A stretch of 64,000 nt of DNA from Polytrichum commune. Its lineage: Eukaryota; Streptophyta; Polytrichopsida; Polytrichales; Polytrichaceae. The notes under the pieces are model-generated. The model was given only the letters and a program-made list of their open reading frames with translations, was not told the origin of the DNA and searched no databases. Made by a program: the position numbers and the translations under genes. This document shows positions 13,330-62,100 of the stretch, in pieces. Positions within the stretch are counted from its first letter, which is position 1. Each line of letters starts with the position of its first letter. Where the stretch lies: the NCBI GenBank assembly GCA_950295325.1, contig OX485803.1, positions 34,921,554-34,985,553 of the forward strand. The letters are read 5' to 3'.

Positions 13330-15010
13330 ACAAATACATGCCCTTTTGCGTAGATCCATGATCATCAAGGAAATTATCAAACAACCATCTCCATGGATAG
13401 ATTTACATGGCTATGGAAAAAAATGCTCAACCCACATAACCATTAACACCCTCTCGCCTCCAACACAATGCTTTGCCACAAAAATTCCTTCCACTAATCA
13501 ACCGCTACATTAAAACTTTACCTAGACACCCCTCAACTACTGCCCCTATGAGTCAAAACCATCACACCCTCCCACATGACATCCTAAGCAATCTCATCAA
13601 TATTTTCCAACTCAAACACTCCTACTACTTGATCCAATCACATGCCCCACAACTTTCACACAATGTGTGCTCCTACTTGTAATAGAACATACCAAAACAA
13701 CATCATGGACATGTTCATCTTCCTTAACAACCTCAATAGCATATATCTACTTCTAAATCCCGTAAGACACCCCTCCTCCCAAAATAATCACCCGGACAAG
13801 CTTCTCATCACACAAATTAGAAATGCCATCAAAACCTCACACCATAACACCACCATTAGAAAAGTAAGAGCACATACAAACATCCAAGGCAACGACAAAG
13901 CCAATAAATTCGCCAAATGAAGGGGCACTAAAACCACAAATCCTAAAAACCCTCTTCCACCATATAGGACACCAAACATCATTATGGCCCTCCATCTCCC
14001 CCACTTCAACCCAACACGACGGTTGAGTCATGAAAGAGGTACATAGAAAACAAATACAAAAGAGCCCTCATATCACCATGCTACAAACACATTACCAAAC
14101 GTATCAAAATGGCTATCCACTTAAGACATCCATCTTAAATGGTCCAACCTCTTCTAGAAGGCACCTTGGATCACAAATGCACAAATCACCCAAATTCTTA
14201 AATTCCAATATGGTAGATACATGGAAAGCTATTGAAAAAAACCATGTACTCAACAAATATTTCCCCACTATGCAACTTTGCCTACCAAAAAGAAAACAAT
14301 ACATGTATGCACCCTCCTATCATGTTGCACAAACCAACACATAAACAATCTTTGCACAAATAGACACAATAAAGCGGTTCACGCACTAGGAACCACTCTA
14401 TTAGCTCACCCCACCACAAGATGCTTCACACTCATAAACACCGGCAAAATCCATAACCATACGTTGGAGAACACAACACCATCATGGCTCCTCCCATGCA
14501 TGTGCTACCTCCCAAAATGCACACGCCCCACCAAAACTACGACTGAACATATTATGCATTCTTGGCACAAGACTCACATATAAGCCCCCATTCACACCCA
14601 ACTTAAAAGGTACAAGTTCTCAAATTCATATATTGTAACACCTGATTCCCTCAAGAAACCATCACAAGAAAACTAGAAAAATACGACACCCTACAAACAT
14701 CACTAATACAAACAAGGATGGACGGTTCTCACCCCATTTATCATTACAACAAGCATCAAAGGCACCATACATAAAGCCACTACAAAAACCCTCTTAGACC
14801 TCAAAATCTCTACCATTAAAATCCACAAACTCATGGAATCCTTATCACAAAGCTCCATTTGATACCTCACACATATCATCTGTAATAAATAAATAATTAG
14901 AAAATAAATAAACCCCAATCCCGCTCCCATAAACACAAAAACCACTAACCCCAATTTAACAATTAATTAATAATACTAAGCAACGAACTACCGGTCCACC
15001 TACTAATTGT
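13330..15010 (+). pseudogene. Non-LTR retrotransposon family 1, 3' half with RNase H (relic)
   Basis: The coding trace is in several frames. The RNase H segment is at about 13700-13920: NSIYLLLN, then the motif KVRAHTNIQGNDKANKFAK, which matches the H----GN--AD--AK signature of LINE RNase H with N in place of the expected D. A middle segment at 14030-14580 is rich in His, Thr and Asn. The C-terminal segment at about 14750-14890 (GTIHKATTKTLLDLKI, KIHKLMESLSQSSI) matches the C-terminal segments at 46179-46600 and 46640-47030. Frames change several times and contain stops, so no protein is made. The reverse transcriptase core upstream is absent or too decayed to see. These elements copy themselves by target-primed reverse transcription; this is a dead 3' fragment. 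Confidence 0.7.
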
Positions 15011-17182
15011 AGGCGTTAAATCACCTCGGCTCCAAGTCTATGGAGAAGAGACAATGAATGAATATCACATGTCAATGTACGAATACATTCACGTTCCCTT
15101 TTCTTTTTCTTTTTCAATTATGAGGTGTTGTGCCTTCCTTTCGGAAGGTAGGCTCTCGCCACAAACATATAGGGTGCATGTTTTACATTGTGGATGGATG
15201 AGAGTTGTGTTCATATACAACAATCTGTCTCTCATGCAACTCCATATACTCGATTCGTCATTGGATTAAAGAGTTTAATTATTCAAAAGAGTTAAAATTT
15301 CTAAATGAAAAAGAATGATGGTGAGGAATGTGTGATAGGAGTTCATTTAAACATGGGATCTCCAATCAAAGTGCAAATTCTTTTAAACAGAAGTATTCTT
15401 TCTTTCTTCTTTTTTTTTGGGGGGGGGGAGGGGGGATGAAGCTCACATGTGCTTGGAATGGGATGTATGTGTGCTTACTCATATGTTGCGTAATATTGTG
15501 TTGTATTGCTTATTAAACAAAACTATACCACATTCAAACAATTAGTTGTTGTGCTTGGAAGTAAACCTATGAGCCTACTAGTGATATGTATGGAGTGGTC
15601 TTAACATGGTTACAAAATAAGATGCTATTGTAGTACAAAATAAAATCATGTTTTTCTTCACCTCACTCAAATAACCTTTAGAATACCAATGATTGTCTAT
15701 GGAGAGACTTTCTTTTGACAAGAATGGTATGTTCACATGTGATATGCACAAGAGCGGAATCTTACCAAGTTAATCATGATAGAAGTCCAATTAACTCCCC
15801 AACTAGCTAGCTACATAAAATAAAACAAGCAACCACACATGTGTTGAAATCATATTTGAGCAAAATAAATTCCATATGCATCCCAATCCACCCTTCAAAA
15901 TTTTATCCTTTGGACATGAACTTCCTCATAGGACATTGAGGGCTTCAATACGAGTTGAATAAATGTTTGAGGAATATTCATTAAATGTTGAGTTGAAACC
16001 GAGAAAATACCAAACCTTCAAGGATAACGATGATATTCACTCAACTTCACATACTTGCCACTTTTTTTCATGCATTCAATATATATGACTCGATTTTCCA
16101 AGTATGAATTTCAACTTATTTGAACACTCATAAACTATGCATATCAATTGCCAATTGGATGGACTTGTTGTAAATAATTTATCAGTACTATATAAACAAA
16201 TATTTATATTTCAATTTTTGGTATTATGTTTCAGTTAGTCTAATGTTTCATATTATATCAATCGTAAATGAAGTTAATAAGCTCTCGTGTGTTGATACAT
16301 CGTAAATTTAAGAGGAATGCTAACATGTGAGAGGTGAGTAATAAGCAATGAGCAATGATGATAACATTTGCACAATTAACATAAATTTGTTGGTTATATC
16401 CTAATGAAGGGTCCTATAACCATGAAATTCTGAACACGTGGGATCCCAAATTCCTAATCTTGATGATTAGATTCATGTGGAATAATTATTAAGCATGACA
16501 AGTTGTGAGCATATACGTGTGTAGGATGATGTTGGTATAGAGAGAATGGCAAGTGAGCAATGACATGGATAGTTCAAACACTATGCATCTATGAAGAAAA
16601 TCAAGATCACATTCACATGTATGTCAAACATTAGAATACAAAGCCACTCAAACCATATTACTTTAGGCACATGAGGAATCACCAAATGTAATATTTCCAA
16701 GTCCCCATAATGCCCTTAGCTCCTTGTAATCTAGAACACAAGGATCATGCACTAATCATATGCGGTGTTTGGTTGGAGGCAAACCACAACTAGGGTAGCA
16801 ACGGCATCTATACCAAAACATGTGTGTAAGACATGAAAGAATGTGCATAGTCAAAGGGAGGCCACAAAGGCAATCAATCTAAAGATCGAGTGCAATGCTT
16901 GCTATTTGTGGATAGAGGATGACAAATTGAGGGTTTTGGAAGTCAAGAAACGTATTATCAAGCCAAAGGTACACACTCAAGTTGTCACCCTTCATTTAAG
17001 CTTCAAGTGATTTGAAGGTTCCTATACCAATCAATGGCATCAACCAAATGTTTTTGAAGAATCCATGTTCAAGCTACACCAAATCCCCTAGGCATTGAGA
17101 TACAATGTAAAGCTAAAATAGGGCAAAAGCATTGGGAGTTTGCTCTCCACTAATTGGCATTTCTTAAACAAGGTGAGACTTA
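15011..17182. other. Non-genic stretch with a G run
   Basis: A T-then-G homopolymer junction lies at about 15411-15436. No gene, RNA or element was recognised. Confidence 0.4.
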
Positions 17183-26700: not shown

Positions 26701-27510
26701 GAATGGATTGTAGCGTGAAGTTGTTTACAACTACAATGTTTACATTGTAGGCATAGAGTATGGGTAAGATATATAATCTAGGAGATGTTGATTTTGAACT
26801 CCAAAACATAATGTCAATTGTTGGTTTATATCTTAAAAGATAAAATAATTATGTTATCATGTATAAGTTTCATCCAATTTAGATACCCATCTCACCACTC
26901 AGTTTTTCAAGACAACCTGGCACGATCCAAACGCACATAATGTGGAGCATAGGAACAAATGGGAGAGCACAACACTTACAACATATGCCATGGTGAGGAA
27001 GAAATGCCAATGGGTTATATCACAAACACATGTGTATCTTGTATCCATGTATCTATGTAAGGTTGACTACATGATGACAAACACCTTCACGGATGCAACC
27101 ATATATTTAAACTACAACAAGGTCATGTGCATCATACTCACATTATATAGGGTTGCAATTATTGTCGAGCACTAATAGCCAATAATATATAATCAAGATG
27201 TGATGTTAGTACATTATTGATATATAGAGTTCAAGAACTTTCAAAAATACATAAGTATTTTCAAGGTCCGCGTACTAACATTCAACCTACAATAATTCTA
27301 AGGCTTATTGTAGATACACAAATGCCATGTTGATTCCATGGTAATAAATCCCCTGACAAGATGTAGAGCATGAATTCAATGGTTTTAGGGTTCATTTCTC
27401 GAATGTCAAAATGTCGGAAACCTTAGGTGATTTGAGTACTGAGTTTCCTTGTGAGGTGTAAAATCATTTTATTAGTGGAAAACACCATTTCATTGGGGGG
27501 GGGGGGGAGG
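26701..27510. other. Non-genic stretch ending in a G run
   Basis: No gene recognised. A G tract lies at 27495-27507, just before the next MITE. Confidence 0.4.
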
Positions 27511-54109: not shown

Positions 54110-54795
54110 CATAGATGGGGTCACTTTTGACACAATTAGTTAACACTAGAAGTATGTAACTCAAGTATGTATTTTTTGGACATTTAAGGATTAATCATCT
54201 CCACTCTATTTTTCCACCCACACTAATAGGACTTGTTACAGTAGTTGCCGTGAACCGAAATCTAATTTACATAGATACCAGGAAGCTCCGGCCATACATT
54301 AAACCTCCTAACTTTGTTAGACCTTTGAGGGTTGAAACCTTAGAGACATTCGATGGGATCGCTTTTGTCACAATTAGCTCCAGATGAACGCATGTAACTT
54401 GATGACGCATTTTTGGGACGTTTAGAGGGTTGATCGTCTCCTGTCAAGTTTTCCACCCACATTAATAGGACTAGTTAGTGGTAGTTGTCGTGAACTGAAA
54501 TCTAGTTTACGTAGACACGTTGAAGCTCCGGCCATACATTAAACCTCCTAACTTTGTTAGACCTTTGAGAGTTGAAACCTTAGAGACCTTGGATGGGATC
54601 GCTTTTGCCAGAATTAGCTCCAGATGAACGCATGTAACTTGATGACACATTTTTGGGACGTTTAGAGGGTTGATCATCTCCAGTCAAGTTTTCCACCCAC
54701 ATTAATAGGACTAGTTAGTGGTAGTTGTCGTGAACCGAAATCTAGTTTACGTCGACACGTTGAAGCTCGGGGCGTACATTGAACCTCCTAACCCA
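54110..54795. repeat. 240-bp tandem repeat, about 2.9 copies
   Basis: GAAGCTCCGGCCATACATT falls at 54282 and 54522, and a variant (GAAGCTCGGGGCGTACATT) at 54762, an exact 240-bp period. Each unit also contains TTGTTAGACCTTTGAG-GTTG, GATGGGATCGCTTTTG, GCATGTAACTTGATGAC and TTTTCCACCCACATTAATAG. Copies 2 and 3 are nearly identical; the first is more diverged. Confidence 0.9.
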
Positions 54796-57261: not shown

Positions 57262-57471
57262 CAAAGGTATTAAAAAACTAAGTCAAGTCATTTTGGGTGA
57301 TGCCTTCATAGCATGTCCACCTTAGCATGCTAAGACCATACACAAAATATAAGAGCACGGGCAAAACAAATGAAGGTTGCAGGTGAATCATGAACTAACG
57401 AAGATATAGGTGTTTAGAAATATGAAGTACCGGTCCGGTCACACGATTCCACGCATACTCATAGAGGTTGT

Positions 57472-57630
57472 TTTATTAAAAGAAAATAAAAACAATAGTA
57501 AACAATTGCAATACAAAATAAATAAAACAAGTGCACACATATCATATTCTTCTCCCTACTCATCCTCACTATCCACAAGAGTAACATTGACCTCTTTGCC
57601 TCCAAATCTATGAACGGCAAACTTCGTAGA
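57472..57630 (-). other. Possible terminal exon and polyadenylation signal
   Basis: On the minus strand, FAVHRFGGKEVNVTLVDSED then E and a stop (57613-57548), followed by AATAAA at 57477-57472. This acidic-tailed frame could be the last exon of a transcript from the methyltransferase-like locus or a spliced variant; the link is inferred from strand and distance only. Confidence 0.25.
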
Positions 57631-57885: not shown

Positions 57886-60800
57886 TTATTCTTCATCTTC
57901 ATCATCCATATTGAAGAATTGCAAACCACCAACAACAAGTTGCGAATCTCGCAAAGGAGCCAACATTGCATTGAAGATCATAGTGTCTTCTTAGAAGTGA
58001 TGAGGTTCCTACCATTATTGCAACAAGCATGGACAGTTGCACCTACAATATACACCAACAATAAAAACAACATAAGATTTTATTCACAAATGTAAGACCC
58101 AAAATTTAACACATAACATTTGAATGCATTCAAAGAACTAAATTGCACATGTAAAAGCATAAGCCTCCCAAACCACACTTTAGGTTTTGTCAACATTACA
58201 ATAAGAAATTGTAATGATAAGGGCTCCTTTTCAAGGGCTCCTCTTCATAGGATGTCTCCTTGCATGAGTTGTGTACTTGAGGTAGTTTGATTGAAAATAA
58301 TATCCATGGACTCCACTTTGGTCACAGTCAACCCACCTGGTGCGTTAAAAACCGATTGTGGTTGCAACTCCAATCAGAAAAACATCATAACTCATAAACA
58401 CTAAGTCTATAAGCAATGAACTTACCTTAGAAAACATTTAGTGAATTTCTCTATTATTTTAGAAAACAACCAAAGCAAGTAGAATTTCAAACAACATTAC
58501 AAGTGGGTATTAATTATTCTTGTACCGTTTGTGTTGTAACTATTGGTGAGCACAATGGCATCTCATTTATAGCCACCAATCCTTTGCCAAAGCGAATCCA
58601 TATGAGGTAGCATATGTTCTAACATCATCTTGCCCTGTCTTAAATTATGGAAGAAACAACAATAGGGGAGGATCATCAGTAAATTAAGTGTATGCAAATT
58701 CAAACAATGTTTCCACATCCTTTGAATGGTGTGCATTCCAAACTGGAATTGCATTTGGAGGAGAAGACATAATCATAACCACGAAACCCTTTGGCAGATT
58801 CGCCAAAATCAAATCAAATCCCCTGAATATACAAACGTAGGGATGACACCCTAGTATTCCGGTCACGCCCAACCTACAAAATAATGAAAAAAAAATCAAC
58901 AATTAAAACAACAACCCAATATCTTTCTGCAATAGAAAATGACTAAAATAAAGAAGGTTCTACATGTACACTATTTTTTTCACAAAATCAAAGGTCGAAA
59001 CCAACATAAGATTGGCGCTTCCACCATTCTCCAATAAATTAGAGATAGGTGTGTTCTCCACAAATATGGAAATCTTGAGATTAGTGCGTCTAGCTTGAAG
59101 ATTTATCAAACCATGCAGTGAGTGAAGAATAGAAAAGGAAATGTTTGGACACTTCCATCTTGCAATGGACTCGGCATCAAAGCAATATTGTCCAAGTGCT
59201 TATCTTTCTTTCCCTTTTCCTTTTGGGTTATAGGTGGAGGTGAAGGAAGAGTTATAGGTGGTTTAGGTGGTGCAACAACATTTATCTTTCATTTTTGTTT
59301 GCCTCCTTTACCAATGGGTTTAATGAACTCCTCATGAGGCTTCACCTCGACGTGTTGCATGGGCTCCACATAAATACTAAGTGCACCCTCCTTTGTAGGA
59401 TGCAAGTTTGTTTGGGCATAAACCAATGACAAAACTCCAACAGTCATGCATCCACTACATCAACTAAAGTGATGAAATTATGCACATGTTGTTAGATATG
59501 TTTGCCCATGATTTCAAGAACGGGGGAAAGCTTGTAGAGAAATGGATTTACAAGTGTGAAGCTCCCTTATCATGTACCTACAAGACAAGAAAACAATAAC
59601 TTATTCGATAAAAATACAAATCATCGATTCTTAATGCAACATTGCACAAAGGTTCAATGCATACATGTATATGACTTGTCTAATTGCCTCCAACCCTCCT
59701 CGTGACTCCACTTGATTGTTGACTTTGTGATTGGCGGTTCTCCTTGAAGCAAAGGTTTGAAAGCCTTGGCCCACGATAGACAACACCAACACTCAACATA
59801 ATCAACAACTAAAATAACATTTTCCTGGTTGACCACTCCCAACTTGGGGAGTATGCCCTCAAACTCCTCAACAACACCTTCTCTAGTTGCAAGTATTAAA
59901 GCAATATGTAAGAGAATATAGGATTAAAAAACTCACAAGAAACAAATGCACAAATGCACAAACAATCTATAAATTGAGCCCAAAATGATGCCTTGACCAA
60001 CCAAACATAAAAGTTATGCAACAATATTCTCAGCGACTAATGTGATAGTGGTGAAGACTTTCATCACATTAACCACTTTGTCTTGTACTTCCCAACAACA
60101 GGCATAGTTGCAATTTTTGCAATTTCTCCAATGTCATTTTAGGTTTTGGAGCAGAGCTCTAATGGGCATTAATCTATGCAACAAATGAATAAATCAATAC
60201 ATAATAACATATAAATTACATAAACATTCTTAAAATAAAAATACATTAGTTGAGCATGAGCTAACCTCTTTGATGAAATCATATCCATTTGTTGGATCTG
60301 CCAGTGCAAGGAGTTTGTCAAACTCTTTGGATCTACATGATCTCACTGATTTTTTCACTACAAGATTGCAAACCTTCAATTCAAATATTAAGGATCATCT
60401 GTCCACATGAATTTTGTCCCAATATTCACATGTAGCCTCCCCTAAAGCTATGACCACATCCCTTTGGTTGGATTTCCAAACTGAGTATTAATAATTACCA
60501 CAAGGAGATGTATTAATGAAACACCACAACACAAGAATTTTAAAGACATTTACCTTATATATGAAAGCTACAAATACATCCAACAAAAGAGGGTACCATG
60601 TGGACATTGGTTTTTTCTTCTCACACCTTGCATAATCATCAGGCAACAAAAGTGTTTTGAATTCTTGCAGATACAAAATTCCAAAACTACAAATGCAATA
60701 AATCTTGTGCACTAAGCTGGTCTTAACATGGTCATTATTTGTGGATCTACAAATATAAAAATATTGTCAATAACCACTTGAAATGAAACTGTGAATGAAC

Positions 60801-61340
60801 TTAATCAATATGATTTGGATCAATACCTATGAACGTCATTAATCGCATCAAGGAGAATGCTAGTCACACTTGTTGGATCCAAATATATGCAATCCACGTT
60901 GAAATGCTATTCCCACTCATTCCCATGGAACTAGTCAATGTGAAGCCTCCATATTGTGACCCTGTGATTTCCCTCCCAAACCCATAATATTCTACCTTTG
61001 AAACAAACCAAATCCTCATCCTGCAGACATATTTGCTCAAATTCATAATTCACCTCCTACCACAACGGACTCCGAGATTTTATTTCCTAAATAACCAAAG
61101 AATTGATGCCAAGATTGCTCACAAGGGAAACATACAAAACCCTATCACCGTCCCTATACCCAATAACAAACTCATTCTCCAACAGACATCGAGATCCAAA
61201 ATTGCACCAAACAAAGGCAATAGATTCAAATGGAAAATCAAGTTTGAGAAATGAGATCTAGAAAAAAAGATGTAGCTGCAAGTTGTTGATGACAAAATTA
61301 AAATCAATATTCTCAAAATTCTTCTCATGTACATCATATT
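57886..61340 (-). pseudogene. Intron-containing DNA methyltransferase-like gene relic
   Basis: A chain of coding-like segments on the minus strand. One junction is exact: NVDCIYLDPTSVTSILLDAI then NDVHR ends at 60827, an 80-bp GT-AG intron follows (60826-60747), and the frame resumes in phase with STNNDHVKTSL and DDYARCEKKKPMSTWYP up to a GT donor at 60553. Later segments include WKSNQRDVVIALGEATCEYW (60478-60420), EFDKLLALADPTNGYDFIKE (to 60266), AKAFKPLLQGEPPITKSTIK (near 59740) and IYVEPMQHVEVKPHEEFIKP (near 59360). The exon from 58873 carries GFDLILANLPKG, like the FDL--(D/N)PP- catalytic motif IV, then FTDDPPLLLFLP. The exon from 58042 carries GATVHACCNNGRN, like SAM-binding motif I, and ends in an acidic tail (DDEDEE, stop at 57886). 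Motif IV before motif I is the permuted order of beta-class N4-cytosine/N6-adenine methyltransferases. Several stops and one-base shifts break it. NLPKG lacks the usual second Pro and aromatic residue. Family call is moderate; the exon chain itself is firmer. Confidence 0.5.
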
Positions 61341-62100
61341 TTCCTAAAATGTTGTCCTCGTGTGTGTTCCCAACCATGGGGACTAAAACCATTTCATCCC
61401 ACACCAACAAGTATAAATATATGAACACAAACATCCACATAAACAAACAATCGACCCACCACCAAATGGCCAATGCAACATAGTGAAGGTCCAACCTGAA
61501 TGGGGAAGGAGCCAATTTTCTTTTTTTCTTTTTTTCTTTTGGGGGGGGGGGGGGGAGAGGTTTGGGGATTGGAATTTTTGTTTAAGCGCCAAAACAACAA
61601 TTCCGATCCTCTGGATTTTTTTTCTCAAAAAATGGTCCCTTCTTCATTTCAAGAAGGGCACAGTGTGAGCTGGTTGATTAATCCTAGCCACGTCATAAGA
61701 CAACCACATGAGAACTTTAAGGGGAAGGGAGGTTGCATGCATACAAACCAATTCCCTCACTTTTGCATGGCCTCCTCTAAGCTTAAAAAAATAATGAAGG
61801 CAATTATTGAAATGAGAAAGGGGCCATTTTGTTGGAAAAAAATAAGTCTAGGAGTGGAGTTGTTGTTTCATTACTGAAACAAAAATTCCCCTCTAGATTT
61901 TTTTTCAAAAAAAATTGGTCTTCTCTAGTACATGATGGACCAGGAACACACACATGGGTTTAAAGGGGGGGGACTAACTAGCCTCTTTAATAATTTAATA
62001 ACAACCAACTCATAACATCAACGAACAACCTCGGAGAGCCTACTACAACCTTACTACAACCACCACTGGCAAATACATGGTTCACCTCTGCAAGTACTAA
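61341..62100. other. Non-genic stretch with a G run
   Basis: A G tract lies at 61541-61554 and another at 61966-61973. No gene recognised; frames through the tracts are not credible. Confidence 0.4.

What the first reader, a model, noticed from the sequence alone, without database searches (positions are those of the whole stretch)
57886..61340. Decayed, spliced DNA methyltransferase-like locus
Seen: an exon chain with at least one exact in-phase GT-AG junction, a GFDLILANLPKG segment, and downstream GATVHACCNNGRN with an acidic tail. Known: beta-class N4-cytosine/N6-adenine methyltransferases carry catalytic motif IV before the SAM-binding motif I, and are rare as intron-containing eukaryotic genes. 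Inferred: this is a relic of such a gene, with a long N-terminal part of unknown function that could define a fused or mobile methyltransferase family.
Basis: partly seen in the sequence, partly recalled or inferred. Interest (0 to 1): 0.8.

Follow-up and report, generated by a model that had tools for sequence, protein, structure and literature searches.

The report
Jumping gene carrying methyltransferase-like passenger
The spot is a dead copy of a large plant jumping gene that carries, beside its own jumping enzyme, a second gene descended from bacterial-type DNA-methylating enzymes; fresher copies exist in the same genome, and in the subfamilies examined the methylating centre is altered while the protein is still preserved, so it probably now does another job for the element.

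Summary
Minus-strand exons at 61356-57886 match an intron-containing gene family with well over 130 places in the same genome. Spliced or unspliced members pass Pfam's N6_N4_Mtase cut-off (best E 1.5e-8), and a profile of five subfamilies finds DpnA (2.3e-8), CcrM and MboIIA in the PDB, with motif order IV-X-I as in beta-class enzymes. Corrections: the gene is half of a 12.6-13.1 kb, probably Mutator-like DNA transposon (imperfect TIRs, 8-10 bp target duplications in 4 of 4 elements with both ends seen, divergent transposase gene; for this copy just past the window end); the catalytic tetrapeptide is D[LI]PE, DISE, DIPD or QFPD and not DPPY (one copy reads DIPY), and motif I is degraded in four of five subfamilies; the second acceptor proposed is not the family's. 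Between subfamilies the protein is under purifying selection. Elements carry tandem repeats, some with long palindromes, but the palindromes also occur outside the elements. My favoured, unproven mechanism: a former methyltransferase used as a DNA-binding, VANC-like factor of the element. The N-terminal GNHR domain looks ParB-like by eye, but no profile test supported it.

The parts
60827..61356 (-). Decayed exon with the conserved GNHR domain (WVWEGNHRVTIWRLHI); five in-frame stops
   Evidence: tblastn with the intact exon of L003, E 9e-45; stops counted
60747..60826 (-). Intron 1, GT-AG; donor and acceptor shared with related copies
   Evidence: alignment of window with five copies
60554..60746 (-). 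Next exon of the detected chain (middle region)
   Evidence: alignment with copies; tblastn with a wrong-frame query only E 3e-5
60464..60553 (-). Intron 2; donor conserved, the family's acceptor position (about 60464) no longer reads AG
60260..60463 (-). Exon of the middle region
   Evidence: tblastn E 1e-17
59968..60162 (-). Exon of the middle region
   Evidence: tblastn E 4e-14
59693..59881 (-). Exon of the middle region
   Evidence: tblastn E 2e-18
58936..59582 (-). Exon with Pro/Lys-rich stretch, two frames; outer limits approximate
   Evidence: two tblastn pieces, E 3e-22
58526..58873 (-). Motif IV exon: GFDLILANLPKG...FTDDPPLLLFLP...WW; two in-frame stops and one frame change near 58573
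   Evidence: limits from sequence; tblastn E 5e-38, 67% identity; family motif aligned with DPPY of phage enzymes
58148..58405 (-). Motif X and motif I exon, decayed; limits approximate
   Evidence: tblastn E 7e-23 for 58391-58182; the unspliced exon of copy L001 hits N6_N4_Mtase at E 6e-4, below cut-off
57886..58042 (-). Last exon, GATVHACCNNGRN... with acidic tail and TAA
   Evidence: sequence; tblastn E 2e-6 for 57996-57874
57437..57489 (-). Short match to the 3' non-coding part of the element; no 3' terminal repeat or target duplication found for this copy
   Evidence: blastn E 0.005; terminal-repeat search

Best explanation
The locus is the 3' half (in gene orientation) of an old, inactivated, probably Mutator-like DNA transposon of a plant-type genome. 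Elements of this kind carry two divergently transcribed genes: a transposase and a spliced gene whose C-terminal domain descends from beta-class N6-adenine/N4-cytosine DNA methyltransferases (shown by sequence). Between subfamilies this second protein has been kept by purifying selection although the catalytic tetrapeptide and, in four of five subfamilies, the SAM-binding motif have changed (shown). I infer that the protein no longer mainly methylates but acts as a DNA-binding factor of the element, recognising repeats in its non-coding parts (some of which are long palindromes), and keeps the element expressed or mobile, much as VANC does for VANDAL elements. The repeats are shown; that this protein binds them, and what binding does, is inference.
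For: Methyltransferase descent: N6_N4_Mtase E 2.6e-8, 34.5 bits against a cut-off of 26.7, for spliced copy B_C4; continuous 577-aa ORFs, without any splicing, pass the cut-off in 3 of 3 copies, one over profile positions 1-216 of 221; profile A7 against the PDB: DpnA 2.3e-8, CcrM 2e-4, MboIIA 0.007, RsrI 0.13; hhalign to 12 phage enzymes, probability 97%, E 5.5e-11. Transposon: imperfect TIRs; target duplications 10/10, 10/10 and 10/10 bp in three elements, 8/9 in the fourth; 80 of 100 transposase places have a methyltransferase-like place within 15 kb, 80 of 80 on the opposite strand and 79 of 80 divergent, against a random mean of 1.1 and maximum of 5. Selection: dN/dS 0.13-0.28 between subfamilies A and G for four exons, 0.04-0.25 between L048_40 and L049. 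Repeats: tandem arrays in 10 of 11 stretches examined, with units unrelated between subfamilies A, G and L049. Palindromes: 18-22 bp patterns found 267, 1310 and 9231 times against 1, 0 and 0 for the reversed pattern; clusters near methyltransferase-like places 8 of 18, 4 of 5 and 2 of 7, against random means of 0.49, 0.12 and 0.18. Analogy: VANC binds non-coding tandem repeats with motifs that differ between VANDAL families (PMC10398659, abstract and introduction read).
Against: No binding, expression or methylation data. The palindromes are not confined to one subfamily or to the elements: in L109 only 3 of 8 matches lie inside the element, the other 5 beyond its end; the L109-type palindrome also occurs 3 times beside the L040-type gene; element G2 sits inside an array of yet another palindrome (7 cores outside, 1 inside); A-type arms with another centre cluster near the L039/L041 type. 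10 of 18, 1 of 5 and 5 of 7 clusters had no known gene copy nearby, and random placing was uniform, not matched to repeat-rich DNA. Subfamily G has no clean repeated palindrome inside, and none was seen in the 4 kb of the 577-aa subfamily. That subfamily keeps a good motif I (DLFVGTGA), and one of three copies reads DIPY. The transposase matched no Pfam MULE model; only a SWIM finger at 13 bits, below cut-off. The window copy has none of the palindromes. Many dS values exceed 1, so those ratios are rough, and recent copies show ratios up to 2.5.
Confidence: 0.4

Rival explanations
1. The second gene is still an active DNA methyltransferase (N6-adenine or N4-cytosine) with an unusual active site, which marks element DNA to guide transposition or to evade host silencing.
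For: Clear homology to beta-class enzymes; the 577-aa subfamily keeps DLFVGTGA and one of three copies reads DIPYG; the aspartate of motif IV is kept in four of five subfamilies. Phage enzyme Xhv28 has DLPY, so position 2 tolerates Leu. Methyltransferases in other mobile elements are known (PMC5890265, passages read).
Against: Among the copies read, the aromatic residue of DPPY is kept only in L106; elsewhere it is Glu or Asp, or Lys in some decayed copies. A highly amplified recent subfamily, read in copy L109, has LQFPDG without the aspartate. Motif I loses a glycine in four of five subfamilies.
Confidence: 0.22
2. The second gene is a transposition or integration helper like mudrB of maize MuDR: it needs DNA binding but has no role in silencing.
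For: A second gene beside the transposase; dependence of transposition on both genes would explain their constant linkage. mudrB is described as apparently required for integration (PMC6446971, passages read).
Against: In A and B the palindromes lie inside the element between the two genes, upstream of the GNHR exon, and not at the terminal repeats; this fits regulation slightly better than end binding. No direct evidence either way.
Confidence: 0.3
3. Passenger gene: the element captured a host or symbiont methyltransferase gene (Pack-MULE style), and the gene only rides along.
For: MULEs often capture gene fragments (PMC13317346, passages read). The window copy itself is dead.
Against: Four diverged groups (A, G, the 577-aa type and L109) keep the gene on the opposite strand from the transposase, with dN/dS well below 1 between subfamilies. 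A passenger would decay.
Confidence: 0.08

Closest known systems
Beta-class N6/N4 DNA methyltransferases (Pfam PF01555; DpnA, CcrM, MboIIA, phage enzymes)
   Same: C-terminal domain homologous over motifs X, I and II with significant scores; motif IV region aligns upstream, order IV-X-I
   Different: Catalytic tetrapeptide DPPY replaced in nearly every copy read; motif I degraded in four of five subfamilies; long extra N-terminal part; introns; inside a eukaryotic DNA transposon
VANDAL elements of Arabidopsis and their VANC proteins
   Same: Mutator-type element with transposase plus a further gene, and non-coding tandem repeats that differ between families (PMC10398659 abstract and introduction; PMC6446971 passages)
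   Different: VANDALs lack TIRs or have short degenerate ones, these elements have TIRs; VANC is not described as methyltransferase-derived in what I read; no anti-silencing activity has been tested here
MuDR elements with extra genes: maize mudrB; SET histone methyltransferase genes in MuDR families of Phytophthora
   Same: Mutator-type element plus a second gene; the Phytophthora case even recruits a (histone) methyltransferase (PMC6446971 and PMC12730594, passages read)
   Different: Here the fold is a DNA-methyltransferase one of the beta class, with altered catalytic motif
Mobile elements with DNA-modifying enzymes: TET+ DNA transposons of fungi, DNMT-bearing retrotransposons, Dam-bearing DIRS retrotransposons, DNMT-bearing DNA transposons of marine viruses
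   Same: A mobile element recruits a DNA-modification enzyme fold (PMC12730594 and PMC5890265, passages read)
   Different: Different enzyme folds or element classes
ParB-methyltransferase fusions of phages
   Same: Phages often fuse an N-terminal ParB fold to N6_N4_Mtase (PMC12704722, passages read; examples). The GNHR motif resembles the ParB GHxR motif by eye
   Different: No profile test links the N-terminal domain to ParB; several hundred residues separate the two domains here

Membership tests
N6_N4_Mtase homologues (PF01555) | Score above Pfam's curated cut-off | tested here: met
   34.5 bits spliced B_C4; 32.4, 35.3 and 29.9 bits for three continuous ORFs; the D_C7 copy just below at 26.0; window pieces alone: no N6_N4_Mtase hit
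N6_N4_Mtase homologues (PF01555) | Order motif IV, X, I (beta class) | tested here: met
   alignment; match over profile 1-216
Active beta-class methyltransferase | Catalytic (D/N/S)PP(Y/F/W) | tested here: not met
   DLPEG, DISEN, DIPDG, QFPDG, DLPEG in the five rows of A7; DIPEN in L036; DIPYG in L106, 1 of 3 of its type; DLPEG, DLLEG, DLREG, DFPEG, NLPEG, DLPKG among decaying copies
Active beta-class methyltransferase | SAM-binding motif I with GxG | tested here: not met
   DAYASTG, EWNASTS, DLTCSTG, DCSTATG; only the 577-aa subfamily keeps DLFVGTG
Mutator-like DNA transposon | Target duplications of about 9-11 bp (recalled) | tested here: met
   10, 10, 10 exact, and 8 of 9, in 4 of 4 elements with both ends seen; not found for the window copy
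Mutator-like DNA transposon | Terminal inverted repeats | tested here: met
   Imperfect TIRs starting GAGGGAAGCTA and ending ATAGCRCTCCCC
Mutator-like DNA transposon | MULE-type transposase domain | tested here: inconclusive
   No Pfam DDE/MULE hit; SWIM finger 13 bits, cut-off 19.6
ParB-methyltransferase fusion | ParB_N domain at the N terminus | tested here: not met
   Pfam no hit; hhalign to ten phage ParB domains E 0.29 and 0.64; PHROG ParB-like E 0.13 and 0.38
VANC-type anti-silencing factor | Family-specific tandem repeats in non-coding parts of the element | tested here: met
   Units of 136/275, 360 and 295 bp, unrelated between subfamilies A, G and L049; but the palindromes in them are not confined to the elements
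VANC-type anti-silencing factor | Sequence-specific binding and loss of silent marks | not testable with these tools
   needs bench or methylome data
VANC-type anti-silencing factor | Sequence homology to VANC | not tested
   no VANC sequence was compared

The most novel reading that the evidence does not exclude
A Mutator-like group in a plant-type genome has turned a bacterial-type DNA methyltransferase into a mostly non-catalytic, sequence-specific DNA-binding factor that recognises tandemly repeated palindromes (one of them present 9,231 times in the genome, inside and outside the elements): a VANC-like or parS-like recognition system that protects its elements from silencing.
Probability: 0.22. 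Interest if true: 0.85.

Novelty: new variant of a known kind. Interest (0 to 1): 0.68.

Why it matters
Transposons that carry DNA- or chromatin-modifying enzymes are key cases for how mobile DNA and host silencing fight. I saw no account of a Mutator-type element with a beta-class DNA methyltransferase fold in the listings of my searches (open-licence papers only) or in the passages read. Kept by selection after its catalytic centre changed, it offers a concrete test of how a methyltransferase can become something else, with candidate targets (the repeats) and many recent, nearly identical copies at hand. It also warns genome annotators that hits to N6_N4_Mtase in such genomes may be transposon genes and not host 6mA enzymes.

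Tried and rejected
Rejected: a retroviral-type protease reading of 'NLLENGGSANLM' and a Ty3-like element (my first guess, not tested on its own): the family's exon order, TIRs and target duplications do not fit. Rejected: chance ORFs. Tried without result: Pfam on ten window pieces (0 families in 10 of 10); relatives in viral contigs with profile A2 (55 stretches matched a pattern, none confirmed); PDB search with the N-terminal domain (nothing credible); ParB profile comparison; 3' terminal repeat and target duplication of the window copy. The L049/L050 subfamily showed no transposase match within the 18.9 kb examined, so its carrier is unsettled; the carrier of the L036/L037 and L040 types was not established either. 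My first wording, palindromes specific to each subfamily and confined to its elements, was dropped.
Full report
WHAT WAS CHECKED. The finding describes spliced, decayed minus-strand exons at 57886-61340 with a GFDLILANLPKG segment and a GATVHACCNNGRN segment. All are in the sequence. Pfam on ten window pieces finds nothing, so the window alone cannot settle the question. The same genome can: a DNA search lists 48 matching places including the locus itself, the others at 65-75% identity (40 of 102 candidates scored).

THE FAMILY GENE. From two related copies (A_C3 = L001+L007, B_C4 = L008+L002) the gene can be read exon by exon. It has an exon with KMFWVWEGNHRVTAWRRHI (this spelling from L003), a middle part, a Pro/Lys-rich exon, an exon with GFDLIIADLPEG...FLTDDAPLLLFLPE...DWWAINELPL, an exon ending IPWRGAREKDPESLQFLIEALTKPGDVVLDAYASTG, and a last exon beginning AFIHACRRSGRHLVAFEKDSAIF. 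Window exons match these in order with E-values from 9e-45 to 2e-6, except one middle exon (2.6e-5, scored in a wrong frame). Intron 60826-60747 is shared.

METHYLTRANSFERASE DESCENT. Unspliced, the motif X/I exon of L001 gives N6_N4_Mtase at E 6.4e-4, below cut-off. Spliced B_C4 gives 34.5 bits, E 2.6e-8, above the cut-off of 26.7; the D_C7 copy gives 26.0. A further subfamily has the domain in one uninterrupted 577-aa ORF: 3 of 3 copies pass the cut-off, and one is matched over profile positions 1-216 of 221. PHROG methyltransferases (7e-8) and NCBIfam CcrM (2e-5, far below its cut-off) agree. A profile of five subfamilies (A7) against the PDB gives DpnA at 2.3e-8 and 2.6e-8, CcrM 2e-4, two 'methyltransferase' entries 3-4e-4, MboIIA 0.007; 12 of the 16 rows up to E 1 are methyltransferases, and the four others lie at E 0.12 or worse. 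hhalign against 12 phage enzymes gives 97% probability, E 5.5e-11, over motifs X, I and II. A direct alignment with five phage enzymes places DLPEG on DPPY/DLPY. The motif IV exon by itself has no Pfam hit, so its assignment rests on this alignment and on the full-length match. Order IV-X-I is that of beta-class enzymes (recalled).

ALTERED CATALYTIC CENTRE. In the five rows of A7 motif IV reads DLPEG, DISEN, DIPDG, QFPDG and DLPEG, and motif I reads DAYASTG, EWNASTS, DLFVGTG, DLTCSTG, DCSTATG. One of three 577-aa copies reads DIPYG. A highly amplified recent subfamily (L109; 151 matches with 150 of 1363 candidates scored, and 150 matches with 150 of 805 scored, many at 93-100% identity) has, in the copy read, the most altered motif IV. 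Nei-Gojobori dN/dS between subfamily A (B_C4) and G (G1) is 0.13, 0.21, 0.28 and 0.26 for four exons, with dS above 1; for the GNHR exon dS was saturated. Between L048_40 and L049 it is 0.06, 0.12, 0.25 and 0.04. Among recent copies it ranges up to 2.5. So the protein was conserved while elements were active, and individual copies decay, as expected for a transposon gene.

THE CARRIER. A_C3 and B_C4 are 12.7 and 13.1 kb elements flanked by exact 10-bp duplications and ended by imperfect inverted repeats. G1 (L046+L029+L051) and G2 (L047+L030+L052), 12.6 and 12.9 kb, are a second subfamily with a 10-bp and an 8-of-9 duplication. Each carries, on the opposite strand and upstream of the methyltransferase-like gene, a long transposase-like gene. 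L109 ends in the same kind of terminal repeat. For the window copy the transposase remains lie at extended coordinates 65471-68933 and the 5' terminal repeat ends at 73010, both in L011 beyond the window; its 3' end was not found. Genome-wide, 80 of the 100 scored transposase places (of 3198 candidates) have a methyltransferase-like place within 15 kb, 80 of 80 on the opposite strand, 79 of 80 divergent; 1000 uniform random placings give a mean of 1.1 and a maximum of 5 (151 methyltransferase places used: 136 of 150, 10 of 83 rows, 5 of 150). The other 20 have none in these partial lists. Smaller versions: 28 of 41 chosen rows, all 28 on opposite strands, and 9 of the 35 chromosomal rows (the 3 rows on C10 and C12 left out). 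Long target duplications and TIRs point to the Mutator superfamily (recalled); Pfam does not confirm it (SWIM 13 bits, below cut-off), so that name is probable and not proven. Contig ends carry TTTAGGG arrays in 4 of 6 ends examined, so the genome is of plant type; its name is not known to me.

REPEATS AND PALINDROMES. Tandem repeats were found in 10 of 11 stretches examined, the exception being the 4 kb of L106. Units show no relation between subfamilies A, G and L049: 136/275 bp in A-D, 360 bp in G1/G2, 295 bp in L049. Long repeated palindromes occur in A-D (GGTTTCGGTACCGAAACC type), L049 (TGTCTCGGNNCCGAGACA) and L109 (GTTTGGGTCGNNCGACCCAAAC and GCGTTAACGC). Whole-genome counts are 267, 1310 and 9231 for the first pattern of each, against 1, 0 and 0 for the reversed pattern. 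Clusters of listed places lie within 15 kb of a known methyltransferase-like place in 8 of 18, 4 of 5 and 2 of 7 cases; uniform random means 0.49, 0.12, 0.18 (listed places only: 50 of 267, 50 of 1310, and 40 of the 100 listed of 9231; gene places and, for C1 and C2). Against a tight link: in A and B all core palindromes lie inside the element, but in L109 only 3 of 8 do, 5 lying beyond its end at about 8137; L048_40 holds 3 of the L109 type; G2 is inserted in an array of another palindrome; the A-type arms with another centre cluster near the L039/L041 genes, and two clusters lie near a gene of another subfamily; G1/G2 have no clean repeated palindrome inside, and the window copy has none. 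So the palindromes are abundant repeat-array components of this genome that these elements share, and the claim that the protein recognises them is a hypothesis only. I lowered the best explanation from 0.5 to 0.4 and the novel case from 0.3 to 0.22 for this reason, and raised the rivals a little.

THE N-TERMINAL DOMAIN. The exon with GNHR (GNHP in L106) is conserved in five subfamilies. It reminds one of the ParB box (recalled), and ParB-N6_N4_Mtase fusions are common in phages (PMC12704722, passages read; examples). But PHROG ParB-like scores are only E 0.13 and 0.38, Pfam finds none, and hhalign to ten phage ParB domains fails (E 0.29 and 0.64). I do not file it as ParB.

MECHANISM. Shown: descent, linkage to the transposase, conservation with changed catalytic residues, repeats. 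Inferred: the protein binds DNA without efficient methyl transfer; its targets are repeats of the element; the benefit is relief of silencing or control of transposition. The nearest precedent is VANC of VANDAL elements, which binds family-specific tandem repeats in non-coding regions and removes silent marks (PMC10398659, abstract and introduction read). Rivals are an active but unusual methyltransferase and a mudrB-like helper.

NOVELTY. I saw no Mutator-like element with a beta-class DNA methyltransferase in their listings (titles and starts of abstracts). The MULE survey PMC6446971 has no word beginning 'methyl' in its main text, and the 2026 review PMC13317346 none beginning 'methyltransferase'; I read passages of both. 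Repbase and most subscription papers were not searchable. Near precedents exist: SET histone methyltransferase genes in MuDR families of Phytophthora and TET+ transposons (PMC12730594, passages), DIRS elements with Dam-like enzymes, DNMT retrotransposons, and DNMT-bearing DNA transposons of marine viruses (PMC5890265, passages). I therefore call it a new variant of a known kind.

Noticed in passing
window 16312-16388: Fragment resembling the terminal repeat of the same element group, in an orientation that could be another element end; no matching target duplication with the locus studied.
   Followed up: partly
window 26858-27169 (+): Weak transposase-like fragment (28% identity, E 1.6e-7) of the same group.
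   Followed up: no
window 54171-54792: Tandem repeat, 240-bp unit, 2.6 copies, 90% matches.
   Followed up: no
G000 contigs C10, C12, C23: ORFs without stops matching ParB_N and N6_N4_Mtase, on C12 (501 aa) and C10 (722 aa) apparently in one ORF; look like bacterial or phage DNA in the assembly, not examined further.
   Followed up: no
G000, e.g. C1:616088-626110, C1:1180627-1190831, C1:2115505-2125786: Arrays of the 22-bp palindrome GTTTGGGTCGNNCGACCCAAAC with varying centre and varying spacing, without a known copy of the gene nearby; 9,231 exact matches in the genome.
   Followed up: partly
L047 and L052, outside element G2 (G2 positions 227, 366, 13510-14065): Element G2 is inserted into an array of another palindrome, CCTCTCGGTTCCGAGAGG, spaced about 139 bp.
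   Followed up: no
L106:1727-3457: One of three near-identical 577-aa ORFs reads DIPYG where the other two read DIPDG.
   Followed up: no
L038:1566-2330: Methyltransferase-like exon next to ORFs that resemble a Ty3-type integrase (recalled), probably a nested insertion.
   Followed up: no
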